Shown in pieces: positions 6,778 to 19,842 of a stretch of 57,269 nt of DNA. The notes beneath the pieces were generated by a model. The model did no database searches, was not told where the DNA came from, and saw only the letters and a program-made list of their open reading frames with translations. Origin of the DNA: Acidobacteriota bacterium (lineage in GTDB: Bacteria > Acidobacteriota > Blastocatellia > Chloracidobacteriales > JADJPF01); the NCBI GenBank assembly GCA_016213785.1, contig JACQZQ010000108.1, positions 1 to 57,269 on the forward strand. Direction: 5' to 3'. The position numbers and the translations under genes are program-made. Each line of letters starts with the position of its first letter. Positions within the stretch are counted from its first letter, which is position 1.

Positions 6778-8136
6778 ATGCTACCACCAAAAGTGCCTAT
6801 TGCTATCCCACTTGCCACTTATCGAATGATAAAAAGCCCATATAAGTTATTTACAGAATGCTATAAAGAATATGGAGATATTTTTTCTTTAACAACTATT
6901 GCAGGAAATTTTGTTTTTGTCTCAGATTTAGATGTAATTAAAGACATTTTTTCTAAACATAGTAAAAAGTTTAATACTGGAGAAACAGTATTATTTCTTG
7001 AACCTTTTGTGGGTAAACACTCATTATTACTACTAGATGGGACAGAGCATGCTCGTCAGCGTAAACTTCTTACCCCTCCCTTTCATGGCGAGAAAATGAA
7101 GATGTTTACGGACTTAATGCGTGAGGCTTCTCATAAAATGGTAGACAACTGGAAAGTTGGACATACAATTATGATGCGTCAGGAAATGCAAGAAATTACC
7201 TTACGTATTATAGTAAAGAGTGTATTTGGTGAGGAAATGAGCCGTAGAACTCCAGAAATTATTGAAACCGTTAGAGGAGTTTTGCAACTACCTACATTTC
7301 TTACTTTTCTACCATTTTTAAGATTTAATTTAGGCAAATGGAGTCCTTGGGGAAAATTTTTAGTCTGGAGAGAAAAAATAGATAAGCTAATCTATGAAGA
7401 AATAGCCCGCCGTCGTGCAAATCCCCGACCTCAGCCAGAGGATGTAGTAGATATGATGATGCTTTCTCAAGATGAATCTGGCAATTTTATGACAGACAAA
7501 GAAATTCGTGATGAATGTCTAACACTTTTATTTGCTGGACATGAGACTACAGCCCTATCTCTTACCTGGATTTTTATTCCGCTACTGCAAAACCCTGATG
7601 TATTAAAAAAATTAGTTGCAGAAATTAATTCTGTTGTAGGTAATAGTCCTGTAACAGCAGAAATGATTCCCAAGCTTACTTATTTAGATGCAACAATAAA
7701 AGAGAGTATGAGGGTTAATAATCTCTTTCCAATAGTAGCTCGTAAAACTCTAGAACCTTTAGAGTTAAAAGGTTATGAAATACCTGTTGGATCGACTGTT
7801 GCGCCCTGTAATATGATAGTCCATCATTTAGAATCTATCTATCCTGAGCCTTTAGCTTTTCGTCCTGAACGTTTCCTAGATGATTCTCATCATCATCCAT
7901 ATAGTTGGCTGCCCTTTGGAGGCGGCAATCGACGCTGTATAGGCATGGCATTTGCTCAATATGAAATGAAGATTATATTAGCTAGTATCTTACCTCGAAT
8001 AGAGCTAGAATTAATTCCAGGTCAAGATTTCCGAGCAAAACGTTTAGGTCTAGCTTTAGCACCTCCAACAGGGGTTAAGGTAAAAGTTCTTTCTCTAAAA
8101 CCTGCTCCTAGCGAAGTTCTAGAACTAGTCCATTAA
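6778..8136 (+). CDS. Cytochrome P450
   Basis: A 452-residue heme-thiolate monooxygenase. The I-helix motif AGHETTALSL (near residue 252) carries the oxygen-activating acid/threonine pair. The ExxR motif appears as KESMR, and the heme loop FGGGNRRCIG places the axial cysteine at 387. There is no signal peptide, so it is cytosolic. No ferredoxin, ferredoxin reductase or terpene/polyketide gene is next to it, so the redox partner and substrate are unknown. AAGAGAGG precedes the ATG by about seven bases. The PP2C gene follows after 33 bases, which suggests co-transcription. The P450 subfamily cannot be set from reading alone. Confidence 0.96.
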   Translation: MLPPKVPIAIPLATYRMIKSPYKLFTECYKEYGDIFSLTTIAGNFVFVSDLDVIKDIFSKHSKKFNTGETVLFLEPFVGKHSLLLLDGTEHARQRKLLTPPFHGEKMKMFTDLMREASHKMVDNWKVGHTIMMRQEMQEITLRIIVKSVFGEEMSRRTPEIIETVRGVLQLPTFLTFLPFLRFNLGKWSPWGKFLVWREKIDKLIYEEIARRRANPRPQPEDVVDMMMLSQDESGNFMTDKEIRDECLTLLFAGHETTALSLTWIFIPLLQNPDVLKKLVAEINSVVGNSPVTAEMIPKLTYLDATIKESMRVNNLFPIVARKTLEPLELKGYEIPVGSTVAPCNMIVHHLESIYPEPLAFRPERFLDDSHHHPYSWLPFGGGNRRCIGMAFAQYEMKIILASILPRIELELIPGQDFRAKRLGLALAPPTGVKVKVLSLKPAPSEVLELVH

Positions 8137-8169: not shown

Positions 8170-9258
8170 GTGAGCCTACTAGCCAATAGAACCGAGTTGC
8201 TGTTAAAGAGTGTTTTTCAAGTTTCAAAATCTGGTAATAATACTAATGAGTATAATAATGTTTATGATTATTCTCTTGAAGAACAACGTTTTGCAATTGC
8301 TGATGGTATAGGAGAGTCTTTTTATTCAAGGCTTTGGGCTAAAACTTTAGTAACAGGTTTAGTAGCTACTGCTCCATTTCAATTTCTAGAATCAGAGCAA
8401 GACTTAGTTGAATGGTTGGAACCAATGCAAATGACTTGGAAAAAAATAGTTGAATGGGAACAGTCTCCTCAAATAGCCTCTCACCAACTAGAATCAGGCA
8501 CTTTTTCAACTCTACTTGGACTCCAGCTTTTAGATCCTGAACCTGTTTCACCTCTACCGGGAACAAAACCTGCTGATGAACAAATGCGATGGCAAGCTAT
8601 TGCAATAGGAAATAGCTGCTTATTTCAAATAAGAAGAGATCATCTTAACTATGCATTTCCTCTAAATAGCTCAAATCAATTTAATAGCAATTCCTCATCT
8701 ATTTCTAGTGTGGCAAGTAAAAATCAACAAATTTGGCGGCAATTTCATCATTGCCAAGAGATTTGTTATGAGACAGATACTTTTTTTCTAATGACAGAAT
8801 CTTTAGCACAATGGTTTTTACTTGAATATGAACAAGAAAGAAAACCTTGGGCAGAGCTTTACTATTTACAAGACCAAGAAGATTTTCAAGACTTTATTAC
8901 TAATTTAAGAAATTCTGGAAAAATACGTAATACCGATGTTACTTTGTTAACCTTTCAGCTAGGTAAAGAAGATGTAAGTATTGCACCAGCTAATTATAGT
9001 GGAGTAGAAACAGTAGACTCAAGTCTACTTACTACACCTCTATCAGTAGATCCACAAGATAATCAACTAGGAACAACCTTTTTGGTTAAGGAACAGTCAA
9101 AAACTAACAGTAGAGAATCTAAAACAGATAAACATAAAACTGAAAAACAACCAACTATTAAACCACCTCAATTTGGCTCCTTAGATCAACCATCTGTACT
9201 CAAACAAATTGGTAAATCTATAATTGGTTTGTTAGGCAAGAAAGAAGACGAAGAATAA
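8170..9258 (+). CDS. Degenerate PP2C-family protein phosphatase of the TerY-P type
   Basis: The layout follows PP2C proteins found with TerY-P-type kinases: FAIADGIGES (41-50), GTFSTLLGLQL (110-120), AIAIGNSCLFQI, then FLMTESLAQWFL and IRNTDVTLL. In the family as I know it these read ADG, GDS, TDALAQWFL and RNDDVTLL. Here Asp45 of the first motif remains, but GD is GN (148), TD is TE (210) and DD is TD (255-256), so several metal-ligand positions are altered and catalysis may be weak or lost. The C-terminal 90 residues are low-complexity and basic. The GTG at 8170 follows a GAGGTGA site. The next gene encodes a matching pseudokinase. Confidence 0.82.
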   Translation: MSLLANRTELLLKSVFQVSKSGNNTNEYNNVYDYSLEEQRFAIADGIGESFYSRLWAKTLVTGLVATAPFQFLESEQDLVEWLEPMQMTWKKIVEWEQSPQIASHQLESGTFSTLLGLQLLDPEPVSPLPGTKPADEQMRWQAIAIGNSCLFQIRRDHLNYAFPLNSSNQFNSNSSSISSVASKNQQIWRQFHHCQEICYETDTFFLMTESLAQWFLLEYEQERKPWAELYYLQDQEDFQDFITNLRNSGKIRNTDVTLLTFQLGKEDVSIAPANYSGVETVDSSLLTTPLSVDPQDNQLGTTFLVKEQSKTNSRESKTDKHKTEKQPTIKPPQFGSLDQPSVLKQIGKSIIGLLGKKEDEE

Positions 9259-9439
9259 ATTAAATGCTCTTAATTAAAAGTGTTACCATTAGAGTAACAG
9301 AATAAAGAAATTAGAGGTTTAAAGATAATTTCTAAATGCCTCAAAATTTATAGCTAATCACTTATCTAATTTCTCTAAACCCTTAAAACCTATAACTTAT
9401 TAATAATTAGGTAATTAGAGGAGAAAGGTAGTAGATTTT
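9259..9439. other. Intergenic leader before the pseudokinase gene
   Basis: An AT-rich 181-base gap with a small 6-bp hairpin (TGTTAC/GTAACA, about 9278-9296) soon after the phosphatase stop. The long gap suggests separate initiation for the downstream gene, but I see no convincing -35/-10 pair. Confidence 0.4.
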
Positions 9440-11320
9440 ATGAATTGGCCTAGTATATCTGATTATCAAACAGCGATTCTAAACCCTAGTTTATGTTTTC
9501 AACTAGCAGAACTACGTTTAAGTCAAACTAGTCTGATGTCGGCTGGAACACCTAAAACACTTTCTGGTAATTCTGCTTGTGTATTTCAGCTTATATCAAC
9601 AGCTAGCCCTGTTAATCAATGGGCAATACGATGTTTTCTTAGACCTGTTTCTGACCAAGAGCGACGTTATCAACTACTTGACCAACATATAAACGCATCT
9701 CGTTTGCAAGGGCTTCTAGATGCTAAATATATTCCTCAAGCAATTTTAGTAAATAATCAGTGGTATCCTATTATTAAAATGCCCTGGGTAGAGGGTTTTA
9801 CCCTTGATCAGTTTATTGACCAATCTCTAAATTCTCCCTCTCAACTCTTAGATTTAGCCTCTAGATGGCGTATTTTAATTAGTAATTTATACTCTAATAG
9901 ACTAGCACATGGAAATTTAGAACATCGTAATATTATTGTTACAGCACAAAATAGCTTATACTTAGTTGATTATGATACTGCCTTTATACCTACATTAAGA
10001 GGAGAGAAATCTTTAGAACTAGGGAATGAAAATTTTCAAAGCCCTAGACGTACTTTAGATAATTTTGATGAAAAAATTGATAACTTTTCTGCTCTAGTTA
10101 TATACCTAAGTTTAAGAGCATTAGCCTATCAACCTAACTTATGGCAATTTTACCAAGGTGAAAATTTAATTTTCACTAAAAAGGATTACTTAAATCCTTA
10201 TCAATCATCATTATTTTACCAACTAAAAAGCAGCCCTGACGAAATAGTTCGTCAGCTAGCAGGGGTTTTAGAAAATATTTGTGTTAGCTCTAGTGTTATA
10301 GTACCTGAACTTGAGACAGTTCTAAGTAATTTCTCTATTAGTACAGGTGCTCAACAAACTTCACCAAATCAAGGTGCTGCTACATTACCAGAAACTAGGG
10401 TAGCATCTGTTAATCCTTTACAAAATCAACCTATTATTCCATTACCTAGTTGGCAAGGAACACCATCACAAATTAATCCTGTTGCTAATGCTAATGCTGT
10501 TAATCCTATTCAAGGACAGGTTAACCCAAACTTCCAAGTACCAGCAAACAATATAGTTAATCCTTTAGTACCACCTATTCAACAGCAAAATATTCAAAGC
10601 CTTGGTAATAGTCTACCTAATACAAATCTAAACACAAATCCAAAACCTAAATCATCTTTATTATTAAAGATATTTGCTGGAGCTAGCAGTGCAGTAGCAT
10701 TTTTCTTTTTCTGTCTTTCACTTTATCAAATATATTATTATGGAAAGCGGATTTCTTACCTTGAATCAGATGTTTCTTATTACAGTGGACAACTAAATTC
10801 TGAGCGAGAGAAAACAGCTAAACTTGAAAAAGAACTAGCTCAAGAAAAAGAACTTAGAGAAAAAATTCTTTTAAGTAAAAACCAAAGAGACATTGCATCA
10901 ATAACTGCTGGTATATTTGAGAGAGTTCTTTTGGGAACTAATGAAATAAAAAGAATTAATGCTAAAGTTGACTCTTTGAAGTTCTATGAAGGTGGAAACG
11001 AAGGTGTAGTTAGAGATTTAAGAAAATATTCATCAACTTTTACTACAGCAAGCCGCTTTGTTTACTTTGAGCTAAATTTATCTCATCCAAGTCGTTCGGT
11101 AAGAGATAATTTTGTTGTTCAACATATTTGGTATAAGGATAATGTAGAGTGGGCGCGAGGCACATTAAACACTTATCTTGAGCCGGCTTGGGTAAATAGC
11201 TATCATAATGATGGGCGTGGTTGGCCTGAAGCTTATAAATGGTCTGCGGGCAATTACCGCGTAGAGCTACTTGTAGATGGTGAAAAAGTTGCTATTGGAA
11301 ACTTTACTGTTACTCCTTAA
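9440..11320 (+). CDS. Membrane-anchored pseudokinase of the TerY-P kinase type
   Basis: Residues about 1-300 form a kinase-like domain close to TerY-P-module kinases. HGNLEHRNIIV (157-167) stands where the family has HGDLqHgN, and LVDYDTAFIPTLRG with LELGNENFQSPRR matches the DYDGmfVPaL...ELG..nYQHPrR region. The catalytic Asp is Asn159 and the usual AlK lysine is Arg64 (WAIRCF), so phosphotransfer is probably lost. A Pro/Asn/Gln-rich linker (305-405) leads to a transmembrane helix (407-434), a charged coiled coil (438-480) and a C-terminal beta-rich domain ending WSAGNYRVELLVDGEKVAIG, probably extracytoplasmic. AGAGGAGAAAGG precedes the ATG. Confidence 0.84.
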   Translation: MNWPSISDYQTAILNPSLCFQLAELRLSQTSLMSAGTPKTLSGNSACVFQLISTASPVNQWAIRCFLRPVSDQERRYQLLDQHINASRLQGLLDAKYIPQAILVNNQWYPIIKMPWVEGFTLDQFIDQSLNSPSQLLDLASRWRILISNLYSNRLAHGNLEHRNIIVTAQNSLYLVDYDTAFIPTLRGEKSLELGNENFQSPRRTLDNFDEKIDNFSALVIYLSLRALAYQPNLWQFYQGENLIFTKKDYLNPYQSSLFYQLKSSPDEIVRQLAGVLENICVSSSVIVPELETVLSNFSISTGAQQTSPNQGAATLPETRVASVNPLQNQPIIPLPSWQGTPSQINPVANANAVNPIQGQVNPNFQVPANNIVNPLVPPIQQQNIQSLGNSLPNTNLNTNPKPKSSLLLKIFAGASSAVAFFFFCLSLYQIYYYGKRISYLESDVSYYSGQLNSEREKTAKLEKELAQEKELREKILLSKNQRDIASITAGIFERVLLGTNEIKRINAKVDSLKFYEGGNEGVVRDLRKYSSTFTTASRFVYFELNLSHPSRSVRDNFVVQHIWYKDNVEWARGTLNTYLEPAWVNSYHNDGRGWPEAYKWSAGNYRVELLVDGEKVAIGNFTVTP

Positions 11321-17606: not shown

Positions 17607-17727
17607 ATGCTTTGCCCCCAAATAATTCATAAAACAATAACTAACTCATAAAAACAAAATTTTGAAAAAATTTAGAAAAGAGTTTAGGAAAAGTTAAGTG
17701 AAGTATTTAGTAAAAGGAGCCATTACT

Positions 17728-19842
17728 ATGAATACAAACCAAAACATCCTAAAAGCAGAATCTAAATTCCGTAAATCTCCATCCTTTTCACAAAAATATT
17801 CTCAAAATAAAATAAGTTCTGTACTTGAAATCTTAAGCGATTACTACAGAACAAAAACTACAGGAACACTAACTCTTAAAAGCAACAATATTATTAAAAG
17901 CATTAGTTTTAATTCTGGAAATATTATCTTTGCAACTAGTAATCTTCCTAGAGAACAGTTTAGTGAGTTTCTTATTAGTTCTGGACAAATAAGTTATCAG
18001 CAAGTCAAAACAGCTAGTAGATTTGTACAAGAACATCAAATGCATATAGGTCAGGCTTTAGTTAATTTAGGGTATATTAAAGAAAATAAACTAAAAGATT
18101 TAACTACTACTTTAATATCAAATATTATTTACTCAACTTTAGCTTGGCAATCTCCTGAAATCACTTTTCAAAATCACCAACAGCCAAGCTATGAACTAGA
18201 TTTCTCAATGTCAACAATACAACTTTTATATAAAGGAGTTTCTTACATTGAAAACCCTGATTTAATTAAACAAATGATAGGTAATTTAGACGCAGATTTA
18301 TATCTTAATAAAACACCTAGTGAGATACGTCAATTATTAAATCTACAGCCTGAAGAAAATTTTATTATATCTTGTTTAGATAGTATGCCTTACACAACAC
18401 AAGAATTGATTAATATGGGTTCTATTAATGATTTTGTTGTGCTAAGAACTGTTTGTGGTCTACTTAAAACTGCTATAGTGAAAAATTCAGTTTGCAGTGA
18501 AAAACCTGTCTTATCAATAAATAATACAGTAAATGATAATAGGATTTTTGATACTGGCTATGTTATAGAATTTTGTAAGGCAATTGACTTAAAGACAAAA
18601 GCTATTGACTCTGGGGCTTCAATTTATGAGCTTTTAGAAGTCTCTAACAATGCTGGCATTGATCAAGTAAAAGAATCCTATCAACGGCTAGCTTGTAAGT
18701 TTCACCCTTCACAACAAACTAAATTAGATTTCTACAGATTAGATTTTAGTCGTGAATTAGAGTATATATTTCAAAAACTTGCTCAAGCATTAAATAAGTT
18801 TACTAGTGCTGAAAATAATTCTAATGTTTCTACTACAAACGTTAAAAAAACTTTCCATAATATAAATACAAGAGTTGATGATAAAACTACTCAAAATCGC
18901 CCAGTTCAGAATAATAAACCTGAGAATCCACAAAGAGAAATTATGCAATTATGTTATGAAATTGAGAGTAAATATAATGCCATTAAAACTGGTGCCACCC
19001 TTTATCAAATACTAGGCGTAGAACGAGATTCCTCTCAAACAGCTATTAATTCTGCCTTTAATTCTTTATCTAAACGATTTACTCTAGAAAATCATTCTAA
19101 GCTATTAACCTATGGAATAAACCTAGAGCTACAACTCGAAGAAATAATGATGCAGTTAAATAAAGCGTTTATAATTTTAAGCAATCCTGTTAGTAAACAA
19201 AAATATAATAGTCAAATAGGAATGACTCTTCTTTGTAAAACCAATGCAAATAATAATGAGATAGCAAACAAAAACACTTTGAAGCAAGAGCATAAGTTTC
19301 TTATTATAGATAACTTATCTGAGCAAGCAATTTCTAACTCTGCTGAAAACCTAATAGTAGATCAAGAAACTAAAATCATAATAAACCAGGATGATAACTG
19401 TAATGGTGATAAGCTTGAAAGTATTGAACCTAATAAGTTTAATCAAAATGATTCTATAAAATATCATTTACCAAAAAACCAAGAAAAAGATAAAAGTAAT
19501 TCGCCCTTAGCATCAACCTATTATTTACAAAGTATGGAATTTTGTGTTAGAGGAGAACCTGAAAAAGCGATTATAACCCTACGAAAAGCTATAAAAATGG
19601 CACCTGATAACTCTGAATATTGGCTAGAATTAGGTAGAATTTATAGTAATATGCCTAACTATAGTTTAGAACTCGTTGAATCTACTTATAAGGAAGCTAT
19701 GGCACGTAATATTGCAGATGCAAGCTATCCTACAGAACTAGGTTTAATTTATCAAAAAGATAGAAATTATATAAAAGCAAGAGAATACTTTGAAAAAGCA
19801 TTAGCTATAAACCCTAAACAAACCACTGCAAACAAGGGTTAG
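17728..19842 (+). CDS. DUF4388 / two degenerate J-like domains / TPR protein, 3' end frameshifted
   Basis: Residues about 15-170 match the DUF4388 (PatA-like) domain of bacterial signalling proteins. Two DnaJ-like segments follow, IYELLEVSNNAG...YQRLACKFHPSQ and LYQILGVERDSS...YNSQ, both lacking an HPD tripeptide (FHPSQ and FTLEN instead), so Hsp70 stimulation is unlikely. The C-terminus has TPR-like helices (about 600-700). The ATG at 17728 has AAGGAG eight bases upstream, better than the GTG at 17698. The frame stops at 19842, but the -1 frame continues with 29 sensible codons ending at 19922, so one base appears to be missing near 19830. Confidence 0.85.
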   Translation: MNTNQNILKAESKFRKSPSFSQKYSQNKISSVLEILSDYYRTKTTGTLTLKSNNIIKSISFNSGNIIFATSNLPREQFSEFLISSGQISYQQVKTASRFVQEHQMHIGQALVNLGYIKENKLKDLTTTLISNIIYSTLAWQSPEITFQNHQQPSYELDFSMSTIQLLYKGVSYIENPDLIKQMIGNLDADLYLNKTPSEIRQLLNLQPEENFIISCLDSMPYTTQELINMGSINDFVVLRTVCGLLKTAIVKNSVCSEKPVLSINNTVNDNRIFDTGYVIEFCKAIDLKTKAIDSGASIYELLEVSNNAGIDQVKESYQRLACKFHPSQQTKLDFYRLDFSRELEYIFQKLAQALNKFTSAENNSNVSTTNVKKTFHNINTRVDDKTTQNRPVQNNKPENPQREIMQLCYEIESKYNAIKTGATLYQILGVERDSSQTAINSAFNSLSKRFTLENHSKLLTYGINLELQLEEIMMQLNKAFIILSNPVSKQKYNSQIGMTLLCKTNANNNEIANKNTLKQEHKFLIIDNLSEQAISNSAENLIVDQETKIIINQDDNCNGDKLESIEPNKFNQNDSIKYHLPKNQEKDKSNSPLASTYYLQSMEFCVRGEPEKAIITLRKAIKMAPDNSEYWLELGRIYSNMPNYSLELVESTYKEAMARNIADASYPTELGLIYQKDRNYIKAREYFEKALAINPKQTTANKG

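What the first reader, a model, noticed from the sequence alone, without database searches (positions are those of the whole stretch)
8170..11320. Paired degenerate phosphatase and membrane pseudokinase resembling a TerY-P module
Both proteins match the PP2C and kinase of TerY-P triads over several motifs, yet both have lost key catalytic residues: GN, TE and TD in the phosphatase; Arg64 and Asn159 in the kinase. The kinase has gained a transmembrane helix, coiled coil and extracytoplasmic beta domain. No VWA gene is adjacent. This looks like a repurposed sensing or scaffold pair, possibly tied to the P450 just upstream.
Basis: partly seen in the sequence, partly recalled or inferred. Interest (0 to 1): 0.66.

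Follow-up and report, generated by a model that had tools for sequence, protein, structure and literature searches.

The report
Dead phosphatase paired with membrane kinase
A bacterial phosphatase-kinase gene pair descended from a known three-gene signalling and anti-phage module has lost its third gene and the phosphatase active site, yet selection still preserves it, which suggests the dead phosphatase now works as a binding partner of a membrane-anchored kinase-like sensor.

Summary
Window 8170-9258 encodes a PP2C-fold protein and 9440-11320 a kinase-like membrane protein; both match the PADLOC TerY-P models (PP2C 6e-27, STK_OB 9e-63). The phosphatase has lost four metal-site aspartates (N30, N148, E210, T255) that all 19 comparison triad phosphatases keep. 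The congener G001 has lost the same four, partly to different residues, so this is a fixed pseudophosphatase under purifying selection (dN/dS about 0.12). No TerY-type vWA gene was found in either genome (controls 1e-145). All 20 comparison kinases sit near a vWA gene. The kinase half of the claim is weaker: Arg64 is normal for the family (17 of 20), Asn159 is private to this genome (G001 and all 20 others keep Asp), and a post-kinase membrane segment is usual. New here is the C-terminal Ig-like beta-sandwich, a mobile module also fused to a caspase, a transglutaminase and a canonical kinase. The P450 neighbour is conserved, but only two genomes can test it. PP2C/kinase divergence is reversed (0.55, against 0.93-2.71 in 117 triad pairs). 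Best reading: a TerY-P-derived, vWA-less membrane signalling pair with a TAB1-like pseudophosphatase; mechanism inferred.

The parts
8170..9258 (+). PP2C-like pseudophosphatase, 362 aa; PP2C domain aa 1-265, low-complexity tail aa 266-362
   Evidence: PADLOC PP2C 6.4e-27; AlphaFold2 pLDDT 88.7, PP2C fold Z 18.9 to 6ae9 and Z 14.9-15.1 to TAB1; four metal-site Asp lost here and in G001; dN/dS 0.12 for the domain
9440..11320 (+). TerY-P-type membrane kinase homologue, 626 aa
   Evidence: PADLOC STK_OB 8.9e-63 over aa 1-311; 67% identical ortholog in G001
9440..10372 (+). kinase-like domain (aa 1-311): Arg64 at the VAIK position, Asn159 at the HxD position, Asn164 and Asp177 kept
   Evidence: alignment with 20 comparison kinases
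10657..10745 (+). transmembrane segment (about aa 406-435)
   Evidence: hydropathy maximum 1.99; same position relative to the kinase domain as in triad kinases
10745..10910 (+). helical, coiled-coil-like stalk (about aa 436-490)
   Evidence: best heptad register 61% hydrophobic at a/d; helix aa 472-498 in the model, pLDDT only 62-65
10952..11317 (+). C-terminal Ig-like beta-sandwich domain (aa 505-626)
   Evidence: AlphaFold2 pLDDT above 90 from about aa 501 on; Z 9.7-10.4 to Wzt carbohydrate-binding domain, xylosyltransferase and GH2 Ig-like domains; homologues in unrelated proteins
6778..8136 (+). cytochrome P450, 33 nt upstream of the PP2C gene; conserved neighbour in G001 (90% identical)
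   Evidence: PF00067 1.1e-89; G001 order and 35 nt gap; next best P450 in relatives only 33%

Best explanation
This is a two-gene remnant of a TerY-P triad (vWA + PP2C + kinase) that lost the vWA gene and was rebuilt as a membrane signalling pair. Shown: family membership of both proteins, loss of the PP2C metal site in both congeners, continued purifying selection, no TerY-type vWA found in either genome, and an Ig-like beta-sandwich behind the transmembrane segment. Inferred: the kinase domain faces the cytosol and the beta domain the outside; the beta domain binds a ligand or partner; the signal passes through the stalk and membrane to the kinase-like domain; the PP2C-like protein no longer dephosphorylates but binds the kinase-like domain as a regulatory or scaffold subunit, as the PP2C-fold pseudophosphatase TAB1 does for TAK1. 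In the congener the kinase keeps its catalytic Asp and may still phosphorylate; in the window species Asp159->Asn and Phe45->Ser suggest that catalysis is weak or lost and that the complex works by binding.
For: Family. Intact triads as baseline: vWA near all 20 comparison kinases, PP2C as well near 19. Metal-site Asp conserved in 19 of 19 triad PP2Cs and lost at the same four positions in window and G001, partly to different residues. PP2C fold retained, Z 18.9, and fold-level structural residues kept. dN/dS 0.12 for the PP2C domain and 0.16 for the kinase domain. Divergence ratio PP2C/kinase 0.55, below all 117 triad pairs (0.93-2.71, median 1.40): the dead phosphatase is unusually constrained relative to the kinase. 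No TerY-type vWA in G000 or G001 (E 0.85 and 0.10, against 1e-145 to 1e-151 in four positive-control genomes). Beta domain shared with a canonical kinase, behind a hydrophobic segment, in G412.
Against: No interaction, expression or activity data. Only two genomes carry the pair, so the divergence-ratio reversal rests on one pair of orthologs. G001's contig ends about 400 bases past the kinase and that genome is 87% complete, so its vWA absence is less firm. Asn159 is one transition in one assembly and could be an error or a polymorphism. Metal sites can shift: PHLPP2 still binds one Zn (PMC12002173), so metal binding is not excluded. The 181-nt gap between the two genes leaves room for separate transcription.
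Confidence: 0.5

Rival explanations
1. Still an enzyme pair: an active but atypical membrane kinase regulated by a metal-poor PP2C, functionally an ordinary TerY-P derivative (stress signalling or phage defence) that tolerates loss of vWA; Asn159 is an assembly error or a strain-level mutation.
For: G001 keeps Asp159, Asn164 and Asp177, and Arg64 is the family norm; TerY-P works as a defence system in cells (PMC10889362, PMC7699616); kinase-domain dN/dS 0.16.
Against: Four metal ligands lost in both species; no vWA found genome-wide in both; the kinase has also changed family-invariant motifs in both (LQHGN to LEHRN, YDG to YDT, YQHP to FQSP or FQNP).
Confidence: 0.25
2. A decaying module: the triad was acquired, lost vWA and is drifting towards loss, with no present function.
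For: Active-site residues lost in the PP2C and partly in the kinase; narrow distribution: in the class the profile finds this pair only in the two congeners.
Against: Open frames with intact starts and plausible ribosome-binding sites; dN/dS 0.12-0.19 across the folded domains of both proteins, the beta domain included; conserved order and spacing.
Confidence: 0.1
3. The pair forms one operon with the P450 and senses or regulates that enzyme's substrate or product.
For: Same order 345-aa gene, P450, PP2C, kinase in G001; 33-35 nt gap between P450 and PP2C; P450 90% identical in G001 while the next best P450 in relatives is 33%, so the cassette looks gained or lost as a unit.
Against: Only two congeners; neighbour order can persist by descent alone; promoter and terminator scans find no more than shuffles.
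Confidence: 0.25

Closest known systems
TerY-P triad (vWA + PP2C + Ser/Thr kinase with C-terminal OB fold or Zn ribbon; Anantharaman et al. 2012 and Gao et al. 2020, as described in PMC11090510)
   Same: PP2C and kinase proteins match the family models and lie side by side; Arg at the VAIK position; hydrophobic segment behind the kinase domain.
   Different: No vWA gene found in the genome, PP2C metal site gone, no OB fold or Zn-ribbon tail found; instead an Ig-like beta-sandwich; catalytic Asp replaced by Asn in this species.
TAB1-TAK1 (eukaryotic PP2C pseudophosphatase that regulates a kinase; PMC5297835, PMC3245275)
   Same: PP2C fold with lost metal ligands, inferred partner of a kinase; TAB1 structures appear among the structural matches (2irm, 2pop).
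   Different: No common origin claimed; the interaction is untested here; TAB1 and TAK1 are not membrane-spanning proteins (own knowledge).
Membrane-anchored bacterial eSTKs such as PknB (own knowledge) and the canonical kinase in G412 (L089)
   Same: Kinase domain, membrane segment and C-terminal beta domain; L089 carries the same beta-domain family.
   Different: L089 has a normal HRDxKPDN catalytic loop and matches Pkinase strongly; the window kinase belongs to the TerY-P branch and is paired with a pseudo-PP2C.

Membership tests
TerY-P triad | kinase of the STK_OB/TerY-P family | tested here: met
   PDLC02223 8.9e-63, aa 1-311 of the protein to profile 1-310 of 562
TerY-P triad | adjacent PP2C of the family | tested here: met
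   PDLC02222 6.4e-27; adjacent, same strand
TerY-P triad | TerY-like vWA protein encoded with them | tested here: not met
   none adjacent; none in G000 or G001 by profile A5, with four positive controls
TerY-P triad | C-terminal OB fold or Zn-ribbon/Ada-like tail on the kinase | tested here: not met
   profile match ends at 310 of 562; no cysteine-rich tail; tail predicted as an Ig-like beta-sandwich
PP2C/PPM phosphatase | PP2C fold | tested here: met
   predicted model pLDDT 88.7, Z 18.9 to 6ae9, 202 aligned residues
PP2C/PPM phosphatase | set of metal-binding aspartates | tested here: not met
   N30, N148, E210, T255 in place of Asp; Asp45 and Asp256 kept
active Ser/Thr kinase | HxD catalytic Asp | tested here: not met
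   Asn159 in the window; Asp in G001 and 20 of 20 others
active Ser/Thr kinase | VAIK Lys | tested here: not met
   Arg64, but Arg is the rule in 17 of 20 comparison kinases, so not diagnostic in this family
active Ser/Thr kinase | metal-binding Asn and DFG-type Asp | tested here: met
   Asn164 and Asp177
TAB1-like regulatory pseudophosphatase | binds and regulates a kinase without phosphatase activity | not testable with these tools
   needs binding and activity assays

The most novel reading that the evidence does not exclude
A bacterial counterpart of TAB1-TAK1: a phosphatase that evolved into a regulatory subunit of its former opponent kinase after the metal-sensing vWA partner was lost, forming a transmembrane receptor with an Ig-like ligand-binding domain, in which the kinase itself is starting to lose catalysis in one species.
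Probability: 0.25. Interest if true: 0.65.

Novelty: new variant of a known kind. Interest (0 to 1): 0.42.

Why it matters
If true, it shows how an anti-phage or stress triad can be turned into a receptor by losing one gene and one active site. It offers a natural pair of sister species, one kinase with the catalytic Asp and one without, to test whether the kinase needs catalysis once its phosphatase has become a scaffold. It would be a bacterial instance of a PP2C pseudophosphatase paired with a kinase.

Tried and rejected
Reading Arg64 as a sign of degeneration was rejected, because Arg is the family norm. Reading the transmembrane helix as a gain was rejected, because a hydrophobic segment follows the kinase domain in nearly all comparison kinases. 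Simple decay of the pair was disfavoured by dN/dS. The OB-fold tail was sought and not found. No Pfam model matched the beta domain, and the only PDB sequence match was a chance-level nanobody hit. A viral-contig scan with the kinase profile gave no confirmed relative and phage records gave none; plasmids gave two cyanobacterial loci: vWA and PP2C are annotated beside the kinase in Acaryochloris, and in Calothrix, where all genes are annotated as hypothetical, I assign them by position and motifs. The own-genome vWA search with a single sequence had no positive control and was replaced by the profile search with controls. Literature searches combining TerY with PP2C and tellurium/tellurite terms found nothing. 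The 20-genome PP2C search added nothing.

Full report
Observation. Curated libraries barely see them: Pfam and NCBIfam give nothing for the first and only sub-threshold kinase hits for the second. PADLOC, however, assigns them to its PP2C model (6.4e-27) and its STK_OB model (8.9e-63, profile positions 1-310 of 562), the models that also match the triad members tested here. The rest of the STK_OB profile, where by its name the OB fold should lie, does not match.

Baseline. With the STK_OB profile and the window proteins I collected 20 kinases of this family outside the genus: members of the same class and phylum, three loci from named metagenome-assembled genomes and two cyanobacterial plasmids. 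All 20 lie near a TerY-like vWA gene, and 19 of them also near a PP2C gene. L046, a distant member, has a vWA gene but no PP2C found. In L044 the vWA gene lies about 2.5 kb away.

Phosphatase. Aligned to the 19 triad PP2Cs, the window protein has Asn, Asn, Glu and Thr where the others have the Asp of the ED, GD, (T/S)D and first D of the DD motifs (residues 30, 148, 210, 255); Asp45 of ADG and Asp256 stay. The congener G001 has Asn, Asn, Ser and Asn at the same places. Two of the four sites differ in their replacement, which fits release of the site before the split and drift since (inference). The fold is intact by prediction (pLDDT 88.7; Z 18.9 to a PP2C phosphatase; TAB1 among the matches). 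The correspondence of these positions to metal ligands follows from established PP2C motifs, not from a structure solved here.

Kinase. Arg64 at the VAIK position is Arg in 17 of 20 comparators and Lys in three, so it is no sign of decay. Asn159 at the HxD position is a single-base change, AAT for GAT: G001 and all 20 others have Asp. The window species also has Ser45 for an otherwise conserved Gly-loop Phe, which G001 keeps. Both congeners changed LQHGN to LEHRN, YDG to YDT, and YQHP to FQSP or FQNP. The kinase domain is therefore diverged in the genus, and its catalytic Asp is lost only in the window species.

Selection. Between window and G001, dN/dS is 0.06 for the P450, 0.12 for the PP2C domain, 0.16 for the kinase domain and 0.19 for the beta domain (counting method, dS near 1, so approximate). 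In 117 pairs of triads the PP2C usually diverges more than the kinase (ratio 0.93-2.71, median 1.40); in this pair the ratio is 0.55. The dead phosphatase is more conserved than the kinase, the reverse of the family pattern. This is one pair of orthologs, so it is suggestive only.

Missing partner. A profile of eight TerY-type vWA proteins finds its target at 1e-145 to 1e-151 in four control genomes, and nothing in G000 (E 0.85) or G001 (E 0.10). G000 is 96% and G001 87% complete.

C-terminal part. A hydrophobic segment follows the kinase domain in nearly all comparison kinases, so the membrane anchor is probably inherited, not gained. The last 120 residues are predicted with high confidence as an Ig-like beta-sandwich, closest in fold to the Wzt carbohydrate-binding domain, the xylosyltransferase C-terminal domain and GH2 Ig-like domains (Z 9.7-10.4). 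This is a common fold and says nothing certain about a ligand. The domain is not found in the other TerY-P kinases but occurs in unrelated proteins of the phylum: a transglutaminase-like protein, a caspase-domain protein, an AAA+ protein and a canonical kinase. It is thus a mobile module, and kinase-membrane-beta architectures seem to have arisen at least twice. That it lies outside the cell is inferred; the AAA+ fusion suggests that the domain is not always secreted.

Neighbourhood. The order 345-aa gene, P450, PP2C, kinase is the same in G001, with a 33 to 35 nt gap between P450 and PP2C. Among the relatives searched this P450 has a close ortholog (90%) only in G001; others have P450s at about 33%. 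In the class, the pair was found only in the two congeners, and the two other genomes held for the family lack it. Co-inheritance is plausible, but two congeners cannot separate function from shared descent. The gene after the kinase differs between the two genomes.

Interpretation. The most economical account is a TerY-P triad that lost vWA, turned its phosphatase into a non-catalytic subunit and gained a new sensing domain. TAB1, a PP2C-fold pseudophosphatase that regulates TAK1 (PMC5297835, PMC3245275), is the closest working analogy; PHLPP2 (PMC12002173) shows that diverged metal ligands go with loss of activity while a single metal can remain bound. TerY-P itself is a demonstrated anti-phage system (PMC10889362, PMC7699616) and is hypothesized to be a metal-sensing phosphorylation-dependent switch (PMC11090510). 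Whether the present pair still serves defence is unknown. By the membership rule it is not a TerY-P triad (vWA and tail features not met) but a derivative of one.

Trees place window and G001 together with full support, on a long stem, inside the TerY-P family and outside the main clade of class members, most of which have cysteine-containing (Ada-like) tails.

Noticed in passing
L012:6728-8461 (-) in G000:C31: The N-terminal ~125 residues of a TerY-P kinase (N-lobe only) are fused to a DnaJ C-terminal domain and a membrane segment (PDLC02223 4.8e-12, DnaJ_C 1.3e-34). A kinase N-lobe without a C-lobe, on a chaperone scaffold, in the same genome.
   Followed up: partly
window 10952-11317; L081, L082, L084-L087, L089, L096: An Ig-like beta domain without a Pfam model, mobile across transglutaminase, caspase, kinase, AAA+ and other multidomain proteins, sometimes in tandem copies.
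   Followed up: partly
L050:3484-8636 (G186): A TerY-P locus with three vWA genes around one PP2C and one kinase.
   Followed up: no
window 17698-19842: Protein combining DUF4388, a DnaJ domain and TPR repeats.
   Followed up: no
window 9258-9440: 181-nt gap between the PP2C and kinase genes, against 91 nt in G001; the window gap holds a short inverted repeat (GTTAC...GTAAC).
   Followed up: no
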